A stretch of DNA of 17,700 nucleotides, from the NCBI GenBank assembly GCA_945907105.1, contig CAMDSB010000022.1:1-17700 (forward strand). Direction: 5' to 3'. The stretch is from Rickettsia typhi (GTDB taxonomy: Bacteria > Pseudomonadota > Alphaproteobacteria > Rickettsiales > Rickettsiaceae). The position numbers were made by a program, and so were the translations under genes. Below are positions 441 to 17,505 of this stretch, piece after piece. Each line of letters starts with the position of its first letter. The first letter of the stretch is position 1. A model generated the notes under the pieces. The model saw only the letters and a program-made list of their open reading frames with translations. It searched no databases and was not told the origin of the DNA.

Positions 441-470
441 ACTAGTTGTGCCACTTATTAATATTGGTGT

Positions 471-499
471 AGTCTTGTTTTTAATTCTTATTTTGTCAA
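471..499 (-). promoter_or_regulatory. Candidate promoter of tyrS
   Basis: On the minus strand a perfect TTGACA -35 box (494-499) is followed after 17 bases by AAGACT (471-476), a poor -10 box. Initiation would fall about 25 bases before the tyrS ATG at 440. The -35 is convincing and the -10 is weak. Confidence 0.35.
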
Positions 500-513
500 G
501 AATAAAGAAATAT

Positions 514-1248
514 ATGCTAAAACACGCTATCTTCTTTATCATTATTAGTCACGTTGCTTATGCGAGCGATTGGGACAAAGTTCGATTCCAAAACTTAGCA
601 TCAGGTAAAACTTATCCCATCAGTATAGGTAGCGGTTTTTTTGTTAATCAAGATAATATTGTAACCAATAAGCATGTAGTCGAACATTGCTTAAATATCG
701 CGGTTAGAGGCGCAGTGAAGCCAACGTTAGTTAAGCTTCTGTTTGTAGATAATAATCTTGATCTAGCAGTTCTACAGTCCCCCCTAGCCCCTATGAGAGT
801 TCCCTATTTAAGGAACAATCATTCTGAAATACATATTGGAGATATATTATTTTCAATTGGTTATCCGCTAGAAAGAGGTGAAACGGGCAACTATATTATT
901 CTTGAGGCAAAGGTATTAAATACAAGGAAAGATTCAGATACAGGATTTTCTCACATAGAATTCACTGATAATGTAAACCATGGTAACAGCGGTGGGCCGT
1001 TGCTGGACAAAAACTCCAATTTGGTCGGTGTAGTAACAGCAAAGCTAGTTTATAAATACAGCGATCCCAATATCCCACCTAAAAACGTTGCGCTAGCTAT
1101 TGGAGTCGAAGGACTTATAGATTTTCTTAAAAAATCTAGCATACCATATGCATCTAGTTCATCTTATGATATATTTACTAATTATCATGTCGACAGATTA
1201 ACTAAAGATTATGTTGTAAACATCCACTGCGTACAAAATAATAAATAA
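514..1248 (+). CDS. Exported trypsin-like serine protease (S1C type, no PDZ)
   Basis: This is a small HtrA-like protease domain. From the ATG at 514 it has 244 residues. It opens with a signal peptide ([10 protein letters not shown], cut near AYA-SDW), so it should act in the periplasm or outside the cell. The triad is intact: His in TNKHVV (about residue 54), Asp in NNLDLAVL (about 83) and Ser in GNSGGP (about 159). No PDZ domain follows, and only a tail of roughly 35 residues remains after the barrel, so it is shorter than DegP or DegS. The frame is open back to an ATG at 448, but that lies only 7 bases from the divergent tyrS start, and the extra 22 residues would put a second hydrophobic stretch before the signal peptide. 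514 is therefore preferred. The substrate is unknown. The DUF6314 gene follows after 16 bases, probably in one transcript. Confidence 0.85.
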
Positions 1249-1264: not shown

Positions 1265-1780
1265 ATGAAATCTATAGCTCTGCCTACATTTGATGATATA
1301 TTTGACCTATTGAATGGTAGTTGGGACATTTCGCGGCAAATCATTAATTATAAAGACAGTCACTTATGCGCTACATCGCAAGGAACTGCAGAATTTTATA
1401 AACAATCTAATATGACTTCTCTATTACAGGAAAATGTTATTGTAAATTGGGCGAATGGATTTTCTTCTTCGGCGACCAAATCATATCTATTTGAACAAAA
1501 TGACAATTCACTACTACAACACCGCTTTGATAGCCCTATTAATTTATTAAAAAACACACAACTTGATTCCACTATAATGTCTAAAAAAATCCTTATGCAC
1601 ACCCTGCTTTTTTATAAAAATAATCATAGTTTAAGCTCTAATTCTTTATACTACTGCGGTATGGATAAGTATGAACTATCATTTATAATAGTTTCTAAAT
1701 ATAGCTTTCTAATGAATTACCAGATTTCTGGACCGTTCAAAAACTCTTATATACACAGTACATATAGCAAAAGAAGTTAA
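1265..1780 (+). CDS. DUF6314 family protein
   Basis: This is a 171-residue protein with no signal peptide or membrane segment. I recognise the pattern of the alphaproteobacterial DUF6314 family, which is thought to fold as a small lipocalin-like barrel. Supporting motifs are GSWDISR (18-24), GTAEF (40-44), a central Tyr-Leu-Phe (73-75), a CGMDKYEL segment (131-138, usually HxCxxDxY in the family) and the ending ISGPFKNSYIHSTYSK. The usual His before the late Cys is Tyr here. An insertion rich in Asn, Ser and Leu around residues 92-127 is longer than I expect. No biochemical role is known for the family. It lies 16 bases after the protease gene and probably shares its transcript. Confidence is high that it is a gene and moderate for the family. 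Confidence 0.7.
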   Translation: MKSIALPTFDDIFDLLNGSWDISRQIINYKDSHLCATSQGTAEFYKQSNMTSLLQENVIVNWANGFSSSATKSYLFEQNDNSLLQHRFDSPINLLKNTQLDSTIMSKKILMHTLLFYKNNHSLSSNSLYYCGMDKYELSFIIVSKYSFLMNYQISGPFKNSYIHSTYSKRS

Positions 1781-1924: not shown

Positions 1925-2131
1925 ATGATGAATTATACTCAAGATCAAAAGCAACTAGAACTCCAGTCCATAAAACAAGAACATCAAGATCTCAATGAGA
2001 TCATAGACGATCCAAACTCCACAACTAAATTCTCTAAATTCACACTACAAAAACTTAAAAAAAGAAAGCTCTTTCTAAAAGATAAAATTAAGCTGCTACA
2101 ATCTATGTTATACCCTGATATAATTGCTTAA
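1925..2131 (+). CDS. YdcH/DUF465 family small coiled-coil protein
   Basis: This is a small charged protein of 68 residues from 1925 (67 if the adjacent ATG at 1928 is used). It matches the DUF465/YdcH pattern: an early helix with IKQEHQDLNEII, a loop, then a Lys-rich second helix with LQKLKKRKLFLKDKIKLL. The two helices form a short coiled-coil hairpin. The family is widespread in proteobacteria, often near the cell-envelope or division genes of alphaproteobacteria, but it has no settled function. The frame stays open back to an ATG at 1895. That codon overlaps the -10 box and would add a hydrophobic leader foreign to the family, so it is rejected. It converges on the pentapeptide-repeat gene with only 19 bases between stops. 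Confidence 0.75.
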   Translation: MMNYTQDQKQLELQSIKQEHQDLNEIIDDPNSTTKFSKFTLQKLKKRKLFLKDKIKLLQSMLYPDIIA

Positions 2132-2141
2132 TTTATAGTAA

Positions 2142-2160
2142 AAACAACGTTTAATTTTTC
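2142..2160 (+). terminator. Weak terminator-like hairpin after the YdcH-like gene
   Basis: AAAC-AAC-GTTT is followed by AATTTTTCTTTT on the plus strand, just past the stop at 2131. The stem is only four pairs and the T-run lies inside the convergent gene's 3' end. This is a weak case, offered because no other stop signal is visible. Confidence 0.22.
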
Positions 2161-3968
2161 TTTTCTGTTGTTAAAGGCGTGCCAGGAGCTTGATCTGAAT
2201 TTTGAACTTCTGACGCTTTAGGCGGTTCTTTAGGCTCTAGCCCCTTAACATTTTCAAGTGTAACCTGATTTAACACAACACCATCTACAAATGACCTAGA
2301 AAAATCTAAATTAGCGAGTTTAGTAGAACTCAAATTTGTTTTATTAAGTTTTGTTCCGAAAAAGTTGGTGCCTTGAATACTTGACCCACTAAGGTCAGTA
2401 TTGGTTAAATCCGCATCACTAAAGTCCACATCAATAAATAAACAACTTTTAAACTTAGCGTCTTTAAGTTTAGCTCCCTTTAGGATAGTATTTTTAAAAA
2501 CAATTTGTACAGAGCTAATACCTGACAAATCAAGAAAAGCCATATTCATATTTGAAAGATCTTTGTACGCCATCAATTCACTGATATTTGTAATTGCTTC
2601 AGAGCTACTTATTCTCTCGAAACCTTTATTGTTAAACATTATATTACGCGTGAACATGGAATTGATAACTACCATTGCCACATTATTAATTCCTCTCAGC
2701 TGAGAATTATACACGGGTGAATTATCAAACGTCACAGATTGAAAATCACAATTTATCATTGCAATCTGCTCCATCTTAGAGTTAGAAAAAATTGTTCTGT
2801 GAATCTTTGCATTTTTAAAAATCGTTCTGGCTAAGTTAATTTTACTAAAAGAGCTATCCTCTAAATTATAATTATCAAAGTAAGTATCAATTAGATTCAC
2901 GTTTGTTAGACTAAATTTACTTCCTCCTTCATTACTAAAGATAGAATTTTTAAGAGCTGAATTCGACACTTTAAAATCTTTTATTGATGCCTTGTTAAAA
3001 TGAACGTTTGTTGCTTGCACATTGTCAAAATATATTTTTGACATCTTGGCACTAGTAAATTTCACTTCATCAATAACACTTCCTAGCATTTTTACTTCAG
3101 AAAAAGAAGTGTTAGCCATAGACATATTTTTAAATAAAGAGTTATTAAATGTCACTTTCTCTAAAGTAGCATTTTTCATCGAAGCATTTTCAAATATAGC
3201 TGAGTCGAATTTAGTCTCTTCTGTGAATTTTGCCTCATCTACAATACTTTGACTAAAATCTGTATTAATAAAACTGGCTCCTTTAGAAATAATTCCACTT
3301 AAATCAGACGATTCAAAACTACATTCCTTAACCAACACTTGTGAAAGTGTAGCCCCTCTAATATCAACACCAAAAAACGCTGAGTTATTAATTTTCGAAC
3401 CAGTAAGATTTATATTTACTAAATTTGCTTTTTGTAAATTTACATTATCCATCTGTACTTCTTTCATTACAGCCTTCATCAAGTTGGCTTCATCAAATCT
3501 TGAATTGGAAATTTTAGCACCAGTAAAGTCAGCTTCCTCAAAATTAGCGCCCGATAGATTCACGTCATCAAATATAGACCCATTAAAGATAGAAGCTTGA
3601 AAGTCCACTCCTGGTGCATTGAATTTTTTGAACTTAACATTAGAAAAATCGCTTTCTTGGATTGTGGAACCTGTCAATAGACTCCCATCAAAATTAGCTC
3701 CAGAAAAATCAACTCTCGCAAGCTCTGCGCCGGAAAGATCCATTCTTGACATATCAGCACCAGAAAGGTTGGCTCCCGTTAATTTGAGGCCCCGCAAATT
3801 TGTGCCATACACTTTTTTAAGATCTACTGATTGACGCTCATTTACTTGTTTAGTGATATATTCTTTGATCTCGATACTCTTCTTTTCACTAAGTACACCA
3901 CTACTAACTTCTTTTGTATCGCTACAACCAAGCGCAAAGAATATTGCAATAAAAGTCCATTTTCTCAT
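2151..3968 (-). CDS. Giant pentapeptide-repeat lipoprotein
   Basis: This 605-residue protein has a lipoprotein signal (MRKWTFIAIFFALGC, lipidated Cys at 15), a charged linker to about residue 55, and then about 92 degenerate pentapeptide repeats of the A(D/N)LXX type to about residue 575. Each repeat centres on Leu, Phe, Met or Ile, as in LSGAN, FSDAD and LTNTD. Two places break the register: a short Gly-Gly stretch near 345 and a longer one at about 435-475. The tail is Pro- and Glu-rich. Such repeats fold into a right-handed square beta-helix. About 23 coils would give a rod near 11 nm, tethered to a membrane and probably in the periplasm; this is inference. The gene starts 16 bases after ntrX, with AAGGAT (3978-3983) as ribosome site, so the two are probably co-transcribed and coupled. 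I know no named homologue and assign no function. Confidence 0.88.
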   Translation of the reverse strand: MRKWTFIAIFFALGCSDTKEVSSGVLSEKKSIEIKEYITKQVNERQSVDLKKVYGTNLRGLKLTGANLSGADMSRMDLSGAELARVDFSGANFDGSLLTGSTIQESDFSNVKFKKFNAPGVDFQASIFNGSIFDDVNLSGANFEEADFTGAKISNSRFDEANLMKAVMKEVQMDNVNLQKANLVNINLTGSKINNSAFFGVDIRGATLSQVLVKECSFESSDLSGIISKGASFINTDFSQSIVDEAKFTEETKFDSAIFENASMKNATLEKVTFNNSLFKNMSMANTSFSEVKMLGSVIDEVKFTSAKMSKIYFDNVQATNVHFNKASIKDFKVSNSALKNSIFSNEGGSKFSLTNVNLIDTYFDNYNLEDSSFSKINLARTIFKNAKIHRTIFSNSKMEQIAMINCDFQSVTFDNSPVYNSQLRGINNVAMVVINSMFTRNIMFNNKGFERISSSEAITNISELMAYKDLSNMNMAFLDLSGISSVQIVFKNTILKGAKLKDAKFKSCLFIDVDFSDADLTNTDLSGSSIQGTNFFGTKLNKTNLSSTKLANLDFSRSFVDGVVLNQVTLENVKGLEPKEPPKASEVQNSDQAPGTPLTTEKKN

Positions 3969-3984
3969 CTAATTCTTATCCTTA

Positions 3985-5439
3985 CTAATTCGTTAGTTCT
4001 ACCAACACATCTAAATCCTCATCCGCTTCATGGTCAATTCCATTAAGTTTTCCATTGGCGGCGTGAATATTAAGCGTTTTCAATTTTCTGTGTAACGCGG
4101 ATCTCTCCATGCCTACAAAAGTTGATGTCTTAGAGATATTACTATTAAACCTGTTCATCTGTGCAGTCAAGTACTGTCTCTCAAACACTTCTCTAGCTTC
4201 ACGAAGAGGCATAGACATCATATCAAGATTTGTATCTGGCTTTGAAATATTAACACTATTATTAATAACTTCTTGGGGTAGCATGTCCGATCTAATTTTA
4301 TCAGATGATAATGAACTAGGTGGATTCATTATTAAAGTCCACTCAATTACATTGCGAAGCTGCCTTACATTCCCTGGCCAGTTATACGCCTGAAGCGCAG
4401 CAACAGATTCGTCAGAAAATTCCCTTTCCTTTAGCCCCGAAAATTTTGAAAGCTGCTTAACAAAATATTTAACTAGTAACGGAATATCCTCTTTTCTTTC
4501 AGCTAACATTGGCACATATAAAGGAACAACATTTAACCTGTAATATAAATCTTGTCTAAATCTCCCGTGAGTAATCTCCACCTGCAAATCTTTTGTAGTT
4601 GAAGTTACTATCCTAACATCCAGCTTCGTTGATTTTGTTCCCTTTATTAGAGTTTGATCTCTTAAGAATTTTAGCAATTTATTTTGAGCATTTAAAGGCA
4701 AATCCCCGACATCATCAATGTACAAAGTGCCATTATTTGCAGCTTCAAGCACACTGATTCGTTTATCAAACAGACTCGTTGGCTCTTGCCTCTCAAACTC
4801 ACCAAATAACTCCTGCTGAATTTTAGTAGCATTCATGGCAATCGGGCTGAATACTATAAAGGGCCCATTGGCTCTTTTAGATCTTTTATGTATTAATCTT
4901 GCAGCAAGCTCTTTACCACTTCCAACGGCACCATTTATCATAACCCTTCCGGAGGTTGGGGCAACTTTTTCTATTTCAGATCTTAATTTTGTGGTATTAG
5001 TAGCTGAACCAACAAATTCTGTTTTATCTATTACTTTTGATTTTAGATCTATATTTTCTCTTTTTAGCTTAGCTGATTCGCAAGCTCTTTTGAGAATGAT
5101 CATAAGCTTGTCATGAGTAAATGGTTTTTCTAAATAATCATATGCGCCCATTTTTATAGCACTTACTGCTGTCTCAATTGTGCCATGCCCACTAATTACT
5201 ATAACTGGCATAAGCGGATACTGCTTTTTTACCATCTCTAAAATACCTAAGCCATCCAAATCGCTGTCTTGTAGCCAAATATCAAGGATTATTGCATTAG
5301 GAAGCTTTTCTGATATAGCCTTAAAAGCTTGAGCGCTATTCGCAGCTGACCTGCTCAAAAACCCATCGTCTTTTAAGATATCTGATATTAAATCTCTAAT
5401 ATCTGCTTCATCGTCAATAATCAGAATGTCTAGTGCCAT
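3985..5439 (-). CDS. ntrX: NtrX response regulator (AAA+ / Fis type)
   Basis: This is the response regulator partner of the NtrY kinase, with 484 residues. The receiver domain spans about 1-120, with acidic pocket D9/D10, phospho-acceptor D53, S83 and K105. The AAA+ domain (about 140-370) has Walker A GAVGSGKE (170-177), Walker B LYIDD (239-243) and [10 protein letters not shown] (354-363). A Fis-type helix-turn-helix follows at about 410-455, then an acidic tail. After LFGEFE (211-216) the sigma54-contacting GAFTGA loop is missing, and the usual Asp-Glu of Walker B is Asp-Asp (D242-D243). It therefore probably acts as a DNA-binding regulator rather than a classic sigma54 activator. In relatives NtrYX responds to redox, nitrogen or envelope state. 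A 415-bp gap separates it from ntrY upstream; the pentapeptide-repeat gene follows at once. Confidence 0.95.
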
Positions 5440-5854
5440 AATTTTAACTCTCTTAAAAGACTTAATAATAAAATCAAGCCATACCTAAGCTACTAAACTC
5501 GAATATACTATTTCACTTTTTATAAATTAAATCTTGAACCTTAAGAATAGTAACTCTTATAGTCTAAACTATAGAGCAAACCACTAGGAACTTAGAATTC
5601 ATTCATATAACTTACAAGGGGAAATACTATAAAATTTACTTATTCGAACAAAATAGCAAACGAACAACCCTTTCCCTTCCCTCATAACCAATTCAAACTA
5701 ACTAACTTCTTTCTCTAGCCTGTAAACACTGGATTATGAATCGCTTAACTAGAAGTTATCGCTTTGCAAATTATAAAGCAACAATTTTATAGTAAATATA
5801 CAACATATAGCCATTTTTTTTACAAAAACCTTAATAGTTAAGTAAGGTTAGTTA
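5440..5854. other. 415-bp gene-free region between ntrY and ntrX
   Basis: I see no credible gene here in any frame. The longest thing noticed is an 18-codon ORF from an ATG at 5736. The stretch holds the terminator-like hairpin of ntrY (5827-5849) and a small inverted repeat at 5554-5576 (CTC-T-TATAG, 6-base loop, CTATA-GAG). Near the ntrX end a possible -10 box, TATATT on the minus strand, lies at 5502-5507 and would give a leader of about 60 bases, but its -35 is poor. In most alphaproteobacteria ntrY and ntrX are nearly contiguous, so the gap is odd. It could be eroded coding DNA or a regulatory spacer. Confidence 0.6.
5822..5849 (-). terminator. Terminator-like hairpin after ntrY
   Basis: On the minus strand AACCTTA and TAAGGTT (5843-5849 and 5827-5833) form a perfect 7-bp stem with a 9-base loop. 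It runs straight into TTTTTGT just beyond the ntrY stop. The stem is AT-rich and the T-run short, so termination may be partial. Its place supports separate transcription of ntrX. Confidence 0.5.
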
Positions 5855-7660
5855 TTATTTTAACTTATTCTTTAAACTTACAGCGCTCATTGTTAATTCA
5901 ACCCGTGCTCCGTTATTTTTATTATTAGACAAGCTTACTGTTCCGAAATGGTCTAAAGCTATCCTTTCAACAATAGAAAGCCCTAAGCCCGTGCCATTAG
6001 ACTTTGTTGTAACATAGGCCTCCTTGGCTGATTTTAACATTTTCTTGCTAAATCCAGGCCCATTATCTTCTACACAAATCTTTACAAATTCATCGTCGAC
6101 AAATAACATAACTTTTATTTCCTTCTTCATCGCTGTCTTATCAAAAGACTCTTCAGAATTCAGCATCAGATTTACCATAACCCTATTTATTTGAGAAACA
6201 TCGCAAACAAATTCATGCATTTTAACGTTCGAAAAGAAGGTGTAATTTATAGTATCATTTATTAATTTTCTTGATTCTACCAAGTCATTGATTAAAGAGA
6301 TAATTTCGCATTTAGCAAAATTAGGAGAAGGTAGTCTAGCAAAATCTACAAATTCTGACACTATCTGCCCTATATCATTTGAATGCCTAAGTATGTTATT
6401 TGCATATTTTTCAAAAGAGTCCTTATCCCCCACTTCGTCCTTAAATTTTTTAAGTAACCTTTCGGCAGATAGCTGAATTGGGGTAAGGGGGTTCTTTATC
6501 TCATGAGCCACTCTCCTAGCCACATCAGCCCAAGCCGAAGCTCTTTGAGCAATTAGCAAATCTTTTTGTTGGTGATCAATTTGAGTTACCATTCTATTAA
6601 AGGCCGAGGAAAGCACCTTTACCTCATCCTTTTTTAGACCTTCTATTGGAACCTGCACAGAAAAATCACCATTTTTAACTTTTTCAGCTGCAATTACTAG
6701 CTCTCTAATTGGTCTTACAATACGTTCAGCAAACCTTCTTCCCCAAATAATGGAAGCTAATAGTAACACCACGCTGAGCAAAATAAACACCATCGAAAAC
6801 TTGATCTGCATAGCAACTATCTGGTCCTTTAGCTTCTCGTACTCGGATACGGCCCCTTTGGTCTTATCAATATGATCAATAATTTTTGCATCTACTAATC
6901 TTCCAATTAACAAATAAGTGTCGTCATAATCCTTAATCTTAATCAAAATACGTATCTTAGAGGGATCAGAATCCACCTGTACCACATCACCTCGGTTAGC
7001 TCTATCGATCAAGTAGATTGGAATAGTCATAAAGGCCAGCGAAAAGCTAAGAGAAGTTTGAGCTAGAATCGTATTAGAATTCCTTTGAAAAACTATTGCT
7101 TCGTCAAGAGATCTAAGTTCTGCTTGAGCATTAATGACCTTCAAAAACAATTCGGGACTATGAATCAAATCATAATACATCGAGGTTAAATCATCTGAAA
7201 CCGAGATGGCCGTTTCCCTTAATTGTAACACATGTTCATCAATATAAGATTCTCCAACACTTACCGACTGATCAAGAACTTTTGATATTTTCTTATCAAA
7301 CCAAGCTTCTATCCCGAAATTAAAGAAGTATGTCGAAAAGACTGCAACAATAACAGTTGGTAGAGCTGAGCCAATACTAAATGCAATGACAATTCTCTTA
7401 CGCAGCTTTGAAACTCTGCGTTCTCCACCTTTTGTAAAAGTAAAGTTGCTACTAATTATTAAAACACTCAAAACTAATATTGCAACCAATATAGCAAGCA
7501 GAAGGCTAAGTATTAAAACTGGATCCAAGTCTTTTTGAAAAGATATCCCAATCGATACTATGCTAGATACTATAGTAATAATACAAACCCCACCTACTAT
7601 ATAGAGCAATAGGTTTTTGAATCTATTATTAGTAAAATTATTCCAAGTTTTTTCTAGCAT
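5855..7660 (-). CDS. ntrY: NtrY sensor histidine kinase (PAS-less)
   Basis: This membrane sensor kinase has 601 residues and is the expected phosphodonor for NtrX. It has membrane helices at about 17-40, 47-70 and 88-112, an extracytoplasmic sensing region of about 170 residues, a fourth helix at about 286-306, and a HAMP domain to about 362. HisKA follows with the H-box VAHEIKNPLTP (phosphorylated His 386), then the catalytic domain with N-box (497-504), DNGPGF (532-537) and GTGLGLS (556-562). All catalytic motifs are intact. Free-living alphaproteobacterial NtrY runs about 730-770 residues with a PAS domain between HAMP and HisKA. Here HAMP joins HisKA almost directly, a shortening I also associate with Rickettsia NtrY. 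It follows the fis-like gene after 95 bases that contain a long hairpin. Confidence 0.95.
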   Translation of the reverse strand: MLEKTWNNFTNNRFKNLLLYIVGGVCIITIVSSIVSIGISFQKDLDPVLILSLLLAILVAILVLSVLIISSNFTFTKGGERRVSKLRKRIVIAFSIGSALPTVIVAVFSTYFFNFGIEAWFDKKISKVLDQSVSVGESYIDEHVLQLRETAISVSDDLTSMYYDLIHSPELFLKVINAQAELRSLDEAIVFQRNSNTILAQTSLSFSLAFMTIPIYLIDRANRGDVVQVDSDPSKIRILIKIKDYDDTYLLIGRLVDAKIIDHIDKTKGAVSEYEKLKDQIVAMQIKFSMVFILLSVVLLLASIIWGRRFAERIVRPIRELVIAAEKVKNGDFSVQVPIEGLKKDEVKVLSSAFNRMVTQIDHQQKDLLIAQRASAWADVARRVAHEIKNPLTPIQLSAERLLKKFKDEVGDKDSFEKYANNILRHSNDIGQIVSEFVDFARLPSPNFAKCEIISLINDLVESRKLINDTINYTFFSNVKMHEFVCDVSQINRVMVNLMLNSEESFDKTAMKKEIKVMLFVDDEFVKICVEDNGPGFSKKMLKSAKEAYVTTKSNGTGLGLSIVERIALDHFGTVSLSNNKNNGARVELTMSAVSLKNKLK

Positions 7661-7755: not shown

Positions 7756-8004
7756 CTAATTCTCCGAGATAGCCAATTCTTTAATTTTCTTACGTAAAGT
7801 ATTCCTATTAATCCCTAAAATTTTCGAAGCTTTTACTTGAACACCACCAACATGTTGTAGGGTTTTTTTAATTAAGCTTCTTTCAACTTCATTTATCACC
7901 CTTTCATACAAACCAGATTCTGGACTATCACCTGCATGCATTCTAAAAAATTTATCCAGACTTGCCTCAACGGAGTTAGAAAGTGATTCGCACTCTTTTT
8001 TCAT
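7756..8004 (-). CDS. Fis-family DNA-binding protein, probable NtrC remnant
   Basis: This 82-residue protein consists almost wholly of a Fis/NtrC C-terminal domain. The core GLYERVINEVERSL (31-44) builds the dimer helix, and a helix-turn-helix follows with KASKILGINRNTLRKKI (58-74). E. coli Fis shares the same layout, including LYExVxxEVE and GINRxTLRKK, and also lies beside dusB. The wording HAGDSPESGLYERV, however, reads like the end of alphaproteobacterial NtrC. With ntrY and ntrX next door, the simplest reading is an ntrC that lost its receiver and AAA+ domains. It should bind DNA as a dimer and bend it; its targets are unknown. It starts 18 bases after dusB, without a clear Shine-Dalgarno, and probably shares its transcript. 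Confidence 0.85.
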   Translation of the reverse strand: MKKECESLSNSVEASLDKFFRMHAGDSPESGLYERVINEVERSLIKKTLQHVGGVQVKASKILGINRNTLRKKIKELAISEN

Positions 8005-14769: not shown

Positions 14770-15801
14770 TTATGAAACTCCACCTGTTGGCCCTACTTCC
14801 CCTTCTTTTTGCTCTAAAGCAGTTTTTAGCCAATTATTATATTGCTGCTGAAATTTAGAACTAGGAGATATTAGATAAGCAGCATGCCCTCCTTCCACTT
14901 CTATAAGTGTAGAGTTTTTTATCGTTTTTTGCAAAGGAACTATTGAACTATATGGCACTATTTGATCTTTCTTAGCGTAAATAATACAAGTTGGGACATT
15001 AATTTGCTCTGGATCTACAATTGATCCCTTCACTTCCCATTTTTTATTGTAGGTTATATTTTTCAAACAAAATTCTTCAATGATTTGCAGATAAAGTGAT
15101 TTTGGAATGGAAATACCAGACTGTAGCCAGTCTTCAACTTGTAAAAATAATTCCCTTGAACCTGGAGCTAAAGCGAAATACTTATCAATCTTTTCGCTGT
15201 ATTGTGAAGGAAACATTAAGAAGAACATTATTTGAACATATATTTTCGGTATTAGCTCACTCTCTTTTATCACATTCTCAAAAATAAAATTCTCCAGAAT
15301 TAATGTAATATTACCAAAGTGAGCGAAGTCCCACGGAGTAGTCAATAATGATAAGCTACTAATGCCAAGACCTCTACCAGGAAACGCTGCAACACATATA
15401 TTTCCTCCTATACAATGGCCGATTAGATTAATTTTTTCCTTATTATTTTTACCAATAAAATTTATTATTTCTTGCAACTCACAAACTAAGTCTTCAAGCT
15501 TCAATTGGCTATTAGTCTCCTTCCAATTTATAAGATATACTTCCCCATGTTGACGTAAATTTTGTACAAAATTATTCTCTCCTGATAAAAATAGTATTTC
15601 TGGAGAATTAAAAATTGAAGGAACAATTAGGAATATATTATTTTTGGAAACCAAGGATTCATATCTCATCAGTTTTACTATCTCGGAATCGTAATTTACT
15701 GCTAATGACAAAGCAGAATATCTCGGCTGACTTTTTGATTTTGCAAATCGATCATATTCCATTTTGTATTGATCGTATTTATCGGAGTGAAAACCTAACA
15801 T
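14770..15801 (-). CDS. phaC: PhaC-like polyhydroxyalkanoate synthase (short form)
   Basis: This alpha/beta hydrolase of 343 residues has a cysteine nucleophile: C130 in LIGHCIGGN, where PHA synthases have G-x-C-x-G-G. The triad is completed by D279 in YAKKDQIVP and H306 in EGGHAAYLISP, which align with the KxDxIVP and GHxAxxxNPP motifs of PhaC. It should polymerise hydroxyacyl-CoA into storage polymer on granules. The length matches class III/IV catalytic subunits (about 355) and is far below class I enzymes (about 590). Classes III and IV need PhaE or PhaR, and neither is visible here. The thiolase follows after 58 bases. A related thioesterase or depolymerase role cannot be excluded. Confidence 0.78.
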   Translation of the reverse strand: MLGFHSDKYDQYKMEYDRFAKSKSQPRYSALSLAVNYDSEIVKLMRYESLVSKNNIFLIVPSIFNSPEILFLSGENNFVQNLRQHGEVYLINWKETNSQLKLEDLVCELQEIINFIGKNNKEKINLIGHCIGGNICVAAFPGRGLGISSLSLLTTPWDFAHFGNITLILENFIFENVIKESELIPKIYVQIMFFLMFPSQYSEKIDKYFALAPGSRELFLQVEDWLQSGISIPKSLYLQIIEEFCLKNITYNKKWEVKGSIVDPEQINVPTCIIYAKKDQIVPYSSIVPLQKTIKNSTLIEVEGGHAAYLISPSSKFQQQYNNWLKTALEQKEGEVGPTGGVS

Positions 15802-15896: not shown

Positions 15897-16008
15897 CTAG
15901 TATATCTGAATCTGCTATATTTTATTAGTTATAGCTTATAGGCATGCAGACCTACGACCAGAAATGACTTTTAAAGTTTTTTTTTTGTCTATGGGTGTTT
16001 TGCAAACA

Positions 16009-17505
16009 ATGTCTAATAACGAAACCAAACCTTTTAACAAGATCCGTAACATTTTTTGGCCAATTCACAAATCAGAACTGGCTAAGTTTGTTCCTATCTC
16101 AGCTTTAATGTTCTGCGTTATATTTAACCAGAATGTTTTAAGAATCTTAAAAGATAGCATTTTAATTTCCGAAGTAAGTGCCGAAATTACTAGCTTTAGC
16201 AAGGTTTATGTCGTAACACCAATGGCAGCAATATTTGTTATTGTTTATGCAAAACTAATAAACCACTTACCAATTCACAAAATATTTTACTATCTAGCAG
16301 CAATATTCACTGGCTTTTACATCATATTCGCTTTCGTGATATATCCGAATATTGATTTCTTCCATATGGATAGAGAGCTTCTAGCTCAACTGATGGATAC
16401 TCATCCTCATCTAAAATGGTATATATCTACAGTAGGGAACTGGAGTTACATTCTTTTTTACTCTTTCTCTGAATTATGGCCAAATGTATTTTATATTTTA
16501 ATGTTTTGGCAAATAGCTAATGAAATTACTAATACAAACGAAGCTAAGCGCTTTTACACGTTGTTTTCGCTCTTCGGCAATTCCTCACTGATCTTAGTCG
16601 GCTTTATGATGATGAACTTATCATCAGATAATAGTGTTATCCACCAGTTATTCACTGTATCCAATAGCAAAATTATGTTAGTCCAAGTATCGATTGCAAT
16701 GGTTGCTTTTGCCTCTGTCTTATCATGTTTGCTTGTTCGTTACATTTCAAGAAACTTCAGTAGCACATATTCCAACCTACCAGTTGGTCGTATGGACAAA
16801 TCAACTAGGCCAAAGATGGGGATCATTGAGAGTTTTAAGTATATAGCAAGATCCAAATATTTGTGGTTGATGCTTATATGCTCCGCTTCATTTGGGCTTT
16901 CTATGAATCTGGTAGAAGCAGTGTGGAAAGCTAAAATAAAGGAATTGTACCCTACTGTTAACTCATATGCTGAATTTAATAGTTTATATATACTCTGGAC
17001 CGGCGTTGCTATTATGGTTATGACGATTATAGGTAACAATGTCATGCGCAAAAGCAGTTGGTTTGCCGCAGCAGTAATTTCACCCGTAATTATCCTAACC
17101 ACGGGAACAATTTTCTTTTTTCTAGTAGTTTTTGACGACCACATAATGAATTTTTTCGATGGAGCAATCCTAATGTCTCCATTAGCTCTTGCAGTATTTG
17201 TCGGTGCAGTTCAAAATATTTTATCCAAAGGATCAAAGTACTCTATTTTGGATACATCGAGCCAAATGCTGTATATTCCTCTTGATCAAGAGCTGCGTAC
17301 TAAAGGAAAAGCTGCTGTAGACGTGATTAGCCCTAAAATCGGTAAATCTGCTAGCGGACTTGTTCAATCAATGATCTTCACAATATTGCCTATGGCAACA
17401 TATAACTCTATTGCCGCGCCGCTTATGGTGATTTTCATCGTAGTATGCGTATTATGGATTTATGCTATTAGAAAGGTCTATTTCGAATATCAAAAAATAG
17501 TATAG
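16009..17505 (+). CDS. tlc: ATP/ADP translocase (nucleotide transporter, Tlc family)
   Basis: This inner-membrane antiporter takes ATP from the host cell in exchange for ADP. From 16009 it has 498 residues and about twelve membrane helices, the usual size for rickettsial Tlc (about 498). It follows Tlc1 along its whole length. Diagnostic stretches are IFWPIHKSELAKF at the start, LRILKDSILI, FYSFSELWPNV, NEAKRFYTLF, MNLVEAVWKAKIKELYPT, NILSKGSKYSILDT and YIPLDQELRTKGKAAVDVI. The charged Lys and Glu residues needed by plastid and rickettsial carriers are visible in these. The frame is open to ATGs at 15964 and 15991; 16009 (MSNNETKPF) matches the family's short hydrophilic start. Rickettsia carries several paralogues with different nucleotide choice, so ADP/ATP specificity is inferred. 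ppa follows after 76 bases. Confidence 0.96.
   Translation: MSNNETKPFNKIRNIFWPIHKSELAKFVPISALMFCVIFNQNVLRILKDSILISEVSAEITSFSKVYVVTPMAAIFVIVYAKLINHLPIHKIFYYLAAIFTGFYIIFAFVIYPNIDFFHMDRELLAQLMDTHPHLKWYISTVGNWSYILFYSFSELWPNVFYILMFWQIANEITNTNEAKRFYTLFSLFGNSSLILVGFMMMNLSSDNSVIHQLFTVSNSKIMLVQVSIAMVAFASVLSCLLVRYISRNFSSTYSNLPVGRMDKSTRPKMGIIESFKYIARSKYLWLMLICSASFGLSMNLVEAVWKAKIKELYPTVNSYAEFNSLYILWTGVAIMVMTIIGNNVMRKSSWFAAAVISPVIILTTGTIFFFLVVFDDHIMNFFDGAILMSPLALAVFVGAVQNILSKGSKYSILDTSSQMLYIPLDQELRTKGKAAVDVISPKIGKSASGLVQSMIFTILPMATYNSIAAPLMVIFIVVCVLWIYAIRKVYFEYQKIV

What the first reader, a model, noticed from the sequence alone, without database searches (positions are those of the whole stretch)
2151..3968. 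A 605-residue lipid-anchored pentapeptide-repeat rod coupled to ntrX
About 92 degenerate pentapeptide repeats follow a lipoprotein signal, with two register breaks and an acidic Pro-rich tail. Known pentapeptide proteins with a role, such as the Qnr/MfpA gyrase mimics, are about 200 residues and cytoplasmic. A membrane-tethered rod of around 11 nm is a different object. Its start lies 16 bases after ntrX with a good ribosome site, so its amount should follow NtrX. It could be an envelope spacer, surface scaffold or sensor of the NtrYX pathway. This is the best candidate here for an undescribed system.
Basis: partly seen in the sequence, partly recalled or inferred. Interest (0 to 1): 0.7.

Follow-up and report, generated by a model that had tools for sequence, protein, structure and literature searches.

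The report
Rickettsiales envelope pentapeptide rod beside ntrX
A gene in a relative of Rickettsia encodes a stiff rod, about 12 nanometres long and probably fastened to a membrane by a lipid, which belongs to an overlooked protein family of the order Rickettsiales and which, in the sampled relatives of Rickettsia, usually sits next to the gene of an envelope regulator; what it does is still unknown.

Summary
The 605-aa ORF has a lipobox-type N-terminus and about 100 pentapeptide repeats; AlphaFold2 predicts a beta-helix (pLDDT 91.9) with an alpha-helical N-cap and one helix-bearing joint. It starts 16 nt after ntrX. In Rickettsiaceae-type genomes the gene lies downstream of ntrX on the same strand in 37 of 39 found through ntrX and in 27 of 27 found through the rod, while outer neighbours change. 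dN/dS is 0.12-0.15. The N-cap marks a family found in 124 of 261 sampled Rickettsiales genomes but in none of 287 others of a class sample. Homologues in Wolbachia-, Ehrlichia- and Anaplasma-like genomes look exported, lack the lipobox and lie away from ntrX, so lipid anchor plus ntrX linkage is the Rickettsiaceae variant. Best mechanism (inferred, 0.4): an envelope sentinel or docking rod that works like Caulobacter YjbI, a secreted pentapeptide protein that restrains envelope-stress two-component systems. It lacks YjbI's Cys pairs and conserved tail, so it is not a YjbI. No function has been shown.

The parts
2151..3968 (-). rod gene (PENTA), 605 aa, start and stop codon included
3924..3968 (-). 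lipoprotein-type signal, residues 1-15, lipobox Cys15
   Evidence: sequence; a Cys before the cap in 35 of 36 N-termini; prediction by eye
3783..3899 (-). alpha-helical N-cap, residues 24-62, the family signature
2652..3803 (-). main pentapeptide beta-helix, residues 56-439
2544..2651 (-). joint: interruption with a short helix, residues 440-475
2244..2543 (-). C-terminal beta-helix of about five coils, residues 476-575
2154..2243 (-). disordered Pro-rich tail, residues 576-605, not conserved
3979..3983 (-). AAGGA, possible ribosome binding site
3985..5439 (-). ntrX, response regulator, gene next upstream
   Evidence: NCBIfam NF051870, 615 bits, cut-off 600
5855..7660 (-). ntrY, sensor kinase
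   Evidence: Pfam PF19312 NtrY_N E 1.3e-31

Best explanation
It is a real, selected envelope protein of a Rickettsiales family: exported, closed at its N-end by an alpha-helical cap, about 25 coils (about 12 nm) of square beta-helix with a helix-bearing joint before the last coils. In Rickettsiaceae it is very probably made as a lipoprotein, in the window from the ntrX transcript. Most likely mode of action: a rigid docking rod in the periplasm or at the outer membrane that reports envelope state to, or restrains, envelope-stress signalling and is replenished together with NtrX in a feedback loop, as the secreted Caulobacter protein YjbI is with its two-component systems. Shown by computation: ORF, predicted fold, family, linkage, purifying selection. 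Inferred: export, lipidation, co-transcription, which membrane, and the sentinel role.
For: AlphaFold2 model and the same order of parts in an independent model of a Wolbachia-like homologue. Linkage to ntrX in 37 of 39 and 27 of 27 genomes, firmer than the outer neighbours. Gap of at most 60 nt or overlap in 22 of 36. Cys before the cap in 35 of 36. dN/dS 0.12-0.15. Cap shared beyond Rickettsiaceae: 25 of 36 other fetched proteins above all 120 controls before any iteration. NtrX as a regulator of the envelope in Rhodobacter and essential in Caulobacter (PMC9275681 passages) and essential in Brucella ovis (PMC10746171 passages). YjbI precedent (PMC12864828 abstract, sections 11 and 18, passages).
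Against: No functional evidence. Homologues outside Rickettsiaceae have no ntrX in their fetched flanks. Gap over 300 nt in 7 of 36. One Rickettsiaceae-type genome (G037) has ntrX but no rod by either profile, and one (G015) has the rod elsewhere, so NtrX works without an adjacent rod. Broken, shortened or half-length copies exist. YjbI's Cys pairs and conserved tail are absent.
Confidence: 0.4

Rival explanations
1. Passive structural spacer: the rod tethers or stiffens the envelope at a fixed distance and has no signalling role; the ntrX link only matches its amount to envelope growth.
For: Near gap-free alignment over the rod at 23-90% identity to the window protein, so length is kept. Similar-length capped proteins (541-726 aa) in 95 of the 124 cap-positive genomes. 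Presence in lineages recalled to lack LPS or a normal wall argues for a general mechanical part.
Against: Half-length copies in L017 and L018 and shorter capped proteins in 29 of 124 genomes argue against a strict ruler. Two adjacent faces of the Rickettsiaceae rod are more conserved than the other two (3 of 5000 permutations), which suggests a partner; the Anaplasmataceae-like set does not show this.
Confidence: 0.3
2. Surface-exposed or host-directed protein: the rod is displayed outside or released and binds host or neighbour molecules.
For: Faster evolution than NtrX (dN 0.05-0.12 against 0.004-0.025). Another Rickettsia pentapeptide protein, SrfD, is a secreted effector (PMC11258249 passages).
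Against: dN/dS is low. The family is spread over the order in operon-like or housekeeping contexts (asd, gmk, SURF1). SrfD is about 107 kDa and has coiled coils.
Confidence: 0.15
3. Neutral linkage: the ntrX-rod order is a frozen neighbourhood without functional meaning, and the rod does something unrelated.
For: Other capped proteins of the order work without ntrX beside them; the NtrX-rod identity correlation (Pearson 0.89) is also what plain vertical descent gives.
Against: The gene before ntrX is ntrY in only 25 of 38 and the gene after the rod falls in 20 clusters among 30, so the neighbourhood as a whole is not frozen.
Confidence: 0.14
4. Gyrase mimic of the Qnr/MfpA kind.
For: Same fold class; NCBIfam Qnr model matches at 88 bits.
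Against: 88 bits is far below that model's cut-off of 240; export-type N-terminus; about three times the length.
Confidence: 0.01

Closest known systems
Caulobacter crescentus YjbI, secreted pentapeptide protein (PMC12864828; abstract, sections 11 and 18, passages)
   Same: Export signal, pentapeptide beta-helix, envelope, alphaproteobacterium, a link to envelope two-component systems with feedback.
   Different: 183 residues against 605; two Cys pairs and a charged functional C-tail that are missing here; no lipobox mentioned in what I read; acts on UzcSR and ChvGI, not shown for NtrYX. Sequences were not compared.
Rfr32 of Cyanothece (PDB 2F3L/2G0Y; PMC8145042 passage)
   Same: Signal peptide and pentapeptide beta-helix with an alpha-helical cap.
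   Different: 167 residues, about five coils, cap at the C-end; profile match only 56 bits.
SrfD of Rickettsia parkeri (PMC11258249 passages) and cREM-4 proteins (PMC11077975 passages)
   Same: Pentapeptide proteins of the same bacterial family.
   Different: About 107 kDa or 950 aa; SrfD has two pentapeptide domains plus coiled coils and is secreted into the host cell. A second pentapeptide group of 750-1465 aa lies at separate loci in many of the same genomes; equating it with SrfD/cREM-4 is my inference from size.
Pentapeptide region of DotG/IcmE (PDB 7muc, 9ngw)
   Same: A long pentapeptide stretch in an envelope machine (its periplasmic site is recalled), 93 bits to the A1 profile.
   Different: One domain of a 1048-residue secretion-system protein; the match is of a size that unrelated pentapeptide proteins also reach.
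Qnr, MfpA, HetL
   Same: Fold class; among the Foldseek matches.
   Different: About 200 residues and cytoplasmic (recalled).

Membership tests
Pentapeptide repeat proteins | at least eight contiguous pentapeptides forming a square beta-helix | tested here: met
   definition from the abstract of PMC8145042
YjbI | N-terminal secretion signal | tested here: met
   by eye: charged start, hydrophobic stretch, Cys15; no signal predictor was available
YjbI | two conserved cysteine pairs, one at each end of the helix | tested here: not met
   Cys at 15, 216, 407, 509 only; of these only Cys15 is among the near-invariant columns
YjbI | conserved charged C-terminal tail needed for function | tested here: not met
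   tail length and sequence vary from row to row
YjbI | restrains envelope two-component systems | not testable with these tools
   needs experiment
Bacterial lipoproteins | lipobox Cys after a signal peptide | tested here: met
   Cys before the cap in 35 of 36 Rickettsiaceae-type N-termini; lipid attachment itself untested
Qnr/MfpA gyrase mimics | curated family score | tested here: not met
   Qnr 88 bits against 240, MfpA 85 against 360
SrfD / cREM-4 | about 950 aa with coiled coils | tested here: not met
   605 aa; the model shows beta-helix, a cap and one short helix
Capped Rickettsiales rod family (defined here) | N-cap motif before the repeats | tested here: met
   part of the model A3; cap of its closest genome G001 found at E 1.7e-13
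Capped Rickettsiales rod family (defined here) | joint before the last coils (crown members) | tested here: met

The most novel reading that the evidence does not exclude
Rickettsiales own a private envelope rod. In Rickettsiaceae it has become a lipid-anchored sentinel wired to NtrX, so that damage to or removal of the rod switches NtrYX output, which in turn remakes the rod: a self-resetting envelope sensor in bacteria with very few two-component systems.
Probability: 0.22. Interest if true: 0.8.

Novelty: new variant of a known kind. Interest (0 to 1): 0.6.

Why it matters
Rickettsiales have small genomes and poorly understood envelopes, yet cap-positive genomes in this set go down to about 0.7 Mb. 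None of the listings or passages I saw describes this protein. A conserved exported rod with a fixed genomic partner gives a concrete entry into what NtrYX senses in Rickettsiaceae, and the YjbI work makes the question testable in a laboratory model. The case also shows that whole-length repeat scores mislead for such proteins while cap and joint identify relatives.

Tried and rejected
Whole-database protein searches with the window protein, a Rickettsia homologue and an Ehrlichia-like homologue listed other pentapeptide proteins and gave no usable orthologue names; only the candidates sharing most words were scored, and the lists are capped at 120. Whole-length profile score as evidence of orthology was rejected after a control: 120 other pentapeptide proteins have a median of 177 and a maximum of 286 bits, overlapping the 108-288 bits of the 36 non-Rickettsiaceae proteins. 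Rounds 2 and 3 of the iterated cap search drifted into repeats and were not used; from round 1 on, the added proteins are part of the model. Conserved D/N at position i-1 were not read as metal sites, because A(D/N)LxX is the repeat consensus (recalled). PADLOC: no match. Rfam: no match in the window. No tRNA. The promoter and terminator scan was close to shuffles (19 against 16.3, 3 against 2.1). A plasmid search gave only matches below 60% identity. The gene-neighbour clustering uses mechanical ORFs of at least 100 aa, so some of its 'genes' may be spurious. The face test was made after seeing the means, on the main rod only, and used 17 of the 19 rows of A2.

Rows dropped: the NtrX scan kept the best 80 of 354 relatives (79 loci); I examined L001-L046. 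Alignment A1 holds the window plus 28 of the 39 ntrX loci; left out were L005 and L046 (cut by contig ends), L006 (frame broken near the start), L016 (internal stop), L017 and L018 (half length), L024 and L027 (shortened), L029 (close relative of L028 and L030), L015 and L037 (no rod gene at ntrX). The 36 gaps and N-termini are the window plus 35 of the 37 adjacent loci (without L006 and L016). Of the order search I fetched 40 stretches, chosen and not random; L124 repeats the genome of L103; the 39 proteins scored include three of Rickettsiaceae type (L085, L103, L104), and two, L115 and L117, do not show the cap even after one round.

Full report
1. What is there. The ORF at 2151-3968 (-) encodes 605 residues. 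Its N-terminus has a short charged start, a hydrophobic stretch and a lipobox-type Cys at 15; the ATG lies 16 nt after the ntrX stop with AAGGA 10 nt before it. Pfam finds pentapeptide families and the similar SV2 luminal repeat, and none of the 19 NCBIfam models listed reaches its cut-off. A register segmentation finds 103 pentapeptides, score 252 against at most 54 in 100 shuffles.

2. Structure. AlphaFold2 on an alignment of 29 sequences (A1) gives mean pLDDT 91.9 and pTM 0.83: helices 28-43 and 50-54 form a cap, a beta-helix runs to about 575, a short helix 462-467 sits in an interruption (the joint), and the tail 583-605 is below pLDDT 50. The ten best Foldseek matches in the PDB are pentapeptide beta-helices, nine of them designed beta1-type solenoids and one HetL; QnrB1 follows, and other beta-helices such as alginate lyases also match. 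About 25 coils give about 12 nm with a recalled rise of 0.48 nm.

3. Linkage to ntrX. A scan of the genome collection with NtrX kept 79 loci out of 354 relatives. Of these I take 39 (L001-L037, L042, L046; NtrX identity 59-99%) as Rickettsiaceae-type, from identity and from those record titles that say so. In 37 of the 39 a homologue of the rod lies downstream of ntrX on the same strand. The exceptions are L015, whose genome G015 has the gene elsewhere, next to secD, and L037, whose genome G037 has none by the rod or the cap profile. Seven further loci (L038-L041, L043-L045; 51-56% NtrX identity) show no homologue by blastp. L047 and later were not examined. Since those loci were chosen through ntrX, I also went the other way: the order-wide search with A1 (261 genomes, 120 with E <= 1e-25) gave 44 genomes above 500 bits, 27 of them new. 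In 27 of 27 ntrX lies upstream on the same strand within 1.7 kb; in one (G237) a BioY gene lies between. The outer neighbours are less firmly held: the ORF before ntrX is ntrY in 25 of 38, and the ORF after the rod falls in 20 clusters among 30, the largest of 6 (mechanical ORFs). In none of the 14 loci L022-L035, titled Rickettsia, is ntrY found in the fetched flank before ntrX, but the rod gene is there in all 14. The gap between ntrX stop and rod start is at most 60 nt or an overlap in 22 of 36, 61-193 nt in 7 and 350-821 nt in 7. So a shared transcript is very likely in the window and many relatives, less certain in the last group, and proven in none.

4. Selection and anchoring. dN/dS among the window and its three nearest relatives is 0.12-0.15 for the rod and 0.01-0.03 for ntrX. 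Rod and NtrX identities correlate over 406 pairs (Pearson 0.89, Spearman 0.72), as vertical inheritance would give. A Cys before the cap is present in 35 of 36 N-termini; the exception is Orientia chuto (L036). The +2 residue is Ser in 28, Asp in 3, Gly in 2, Thr in 2; whether the E. coli sorting rule (recalled) applies here is unknown, so the membrane is open. In the main rod two adjacent faces are more conserved than the other two (3 of 5000 permutations reach it); 17 Anaplasmataceae-like sequences do not show this (3325 of 5000).

5. The wider family. Whole-length scores cannot show orthology: 120 other pentapeptide proteins score up to 286 bits with A1. Two non-repeat elements can. The N-cap: controls reach at most 5.4 bits, while 28 of 39 tested proteins, 25 of the 36 not of Rickettsiaceae type, exceed that with the Rickettsiaceae cap alone; after one round of iteration, which puts hits into the model, it is 37 of 39, and L115 and L117 still fail. 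Profile-profile comparison of the cap with that of 19 Anaplasmataceae-like proteins (A2) gives E 4.3e-10, and of the joint E 4.9e-8. The joint motif is visible in L099 and the Wolbachia-, Ehrlichia- and Anaplasma-like proteins, and more weakly in two Neorickettsia-like ones. An independent AlphaFold2 model of the Wolbachia-like protein L090 (mean pLDDT 92.6) has the same order of parts: helix 43-56, helix 62-66, rod, joint helix 499-507, rod. A 44-position cap profile of 26 rows (A3) matches 124 of 261 genomes of the order sample, among them the genomes that supplied rows of the model; 95 have ORFs of 541-726 aa and 29 shorter ones at the best match. In an even sample of the class it matches 2 of 289, and both, G012 and G040, are also in the order sample; so 0 of the other 287. 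A sample can miss rare members, and I was not told the order of those 287. Some genomes have more than one capped protein.

6. Context elsewhere. None of the 36 other fetched loci (L086-L102, L105-L123) shows an NtrX-like ORF in its fetched flanks. Recurrent neighbours, judged from printed ORF starts, are gmk, SURF1 and asd; Pfam confirmed two examples of each, and thioredoxin once. By eye these proteins mostly start with a Sec-type signal or a membrane anchor without lipobox; L108 has a lipobox-like Cys. The asd-linked L110, L111, L113 and L120 have rods without the joint; L099 combines asd linkage with the joint. The simplest history is an exported capped rod older than Rickettsiaceae, later placed beside ntrX and given a lipid anchor there; no tree was built to test this.

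7. How it may work. Nothing functional is shown. In print: ntrX is essential in Caulobacter, and NtrYX regulates LPS, exopolysaccharide and wall composition in Rhodobacter (PMC9275681 passages); ntrX is essential in Brucella ovis (PMC10746171 passages). The 183-residue secreted Caulobacter protein YjbI sits at the outer membrane, silences UzcSR and ChvGI, is lost on zinc, sucrose or acid stress, and its promoter is an UzcR target, a loop that resets the response (PMC12864828; abstract, sections 11 and 18, passages). A rod co-transcribed with ntrX would hard-wire similar logic. I give this sentinel or docking model 0.4 and a passive spacer 0.3. The protein is not a YjbI: Cys pairs and conserved tail are missing and it is three times as long.

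8. What is in print. Searches for pentapeptide repeat with Rickettsia, Rickettsiales, Wolbachia, Anaplasma, lipoprotein, ntrX, periplasm plus signal peptide, or envelope stress, and for NtrX with NtrY and Rickettsia gave no listing, and the passages I read no text, that describes this protein. The pentapeptide proteins discussed for Rickettsia in the passages I read are SrfD and cREM-4. One Megaera paper reports a poorly conserved expressed pentapeptide protein (PMC13134042 passage), which I could not match to this one. Subscription journals, and papers that do not use the word, would be missed.

Noticed in passing
window 7756-8004 (-): An 82-aa Fis-like protein lies between dusB and ntrY; it matches Fis (E 8e-18) and the C-terminal end of NtrC (E 2e-13). 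It could be a remnant of the ntrC that sits in the usual dusB-ntrB-ntrC-ntrY-ntrX order (recalled).
   Followed up: no
window 448-1248 (+) and 1265-1780 (+): A DegP-like trypsin-type peptidase without other Pfam domain, followed by a DUF6314 protein, both convergent with the rod gene; homologues of both lie after the rod in L002, L003 and L008.
   Followed up: no
window 1925-2131 (+): A 68-aa DUF465 protein, convergent with the rod gene.
   Followed up: no
window 5440-5854: A 415-nt gap between ntrY and ntrX that could hold a promoter for ntrX and the rod.
   Followed up: no
G001:C29, G002:C8, G003:C2, G032:C1 about 868-870 kb and others: A second, larger pentapeptide group (ORFs of 750-1465 aa) in many of the same genomes, perhaps SrfD/cREM-4.
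   Followed up: partly
L099, L107, L109, L110, L111, L113, L120, L121: Capped or cap-like exported pentapeptide proteins next to an asd-like gene in other genomes of the order (asd confirmed by Pfam in L099 and L120).
   Followed up: partly
L036, L017, L018, L024, L016, L006, L037: Variation of the rod in Rickettsiaceae-type loci: lipobox Cys lost in Orientia chuto (L036), half length in L017 and L018, interrupted or shortened in L024 and L016, frame broken near the start in L006, no gene in the genome of L037.
   Followed up: partly
window 14770-15801 (-) and 15964-17505 (+): A PHA-synthase-like alpha/beta hydrolase (95 bits against a cut-off of 365) and an NTP/NDP exchange transporter (402 bits, cut-off 387).
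   Followed up: no
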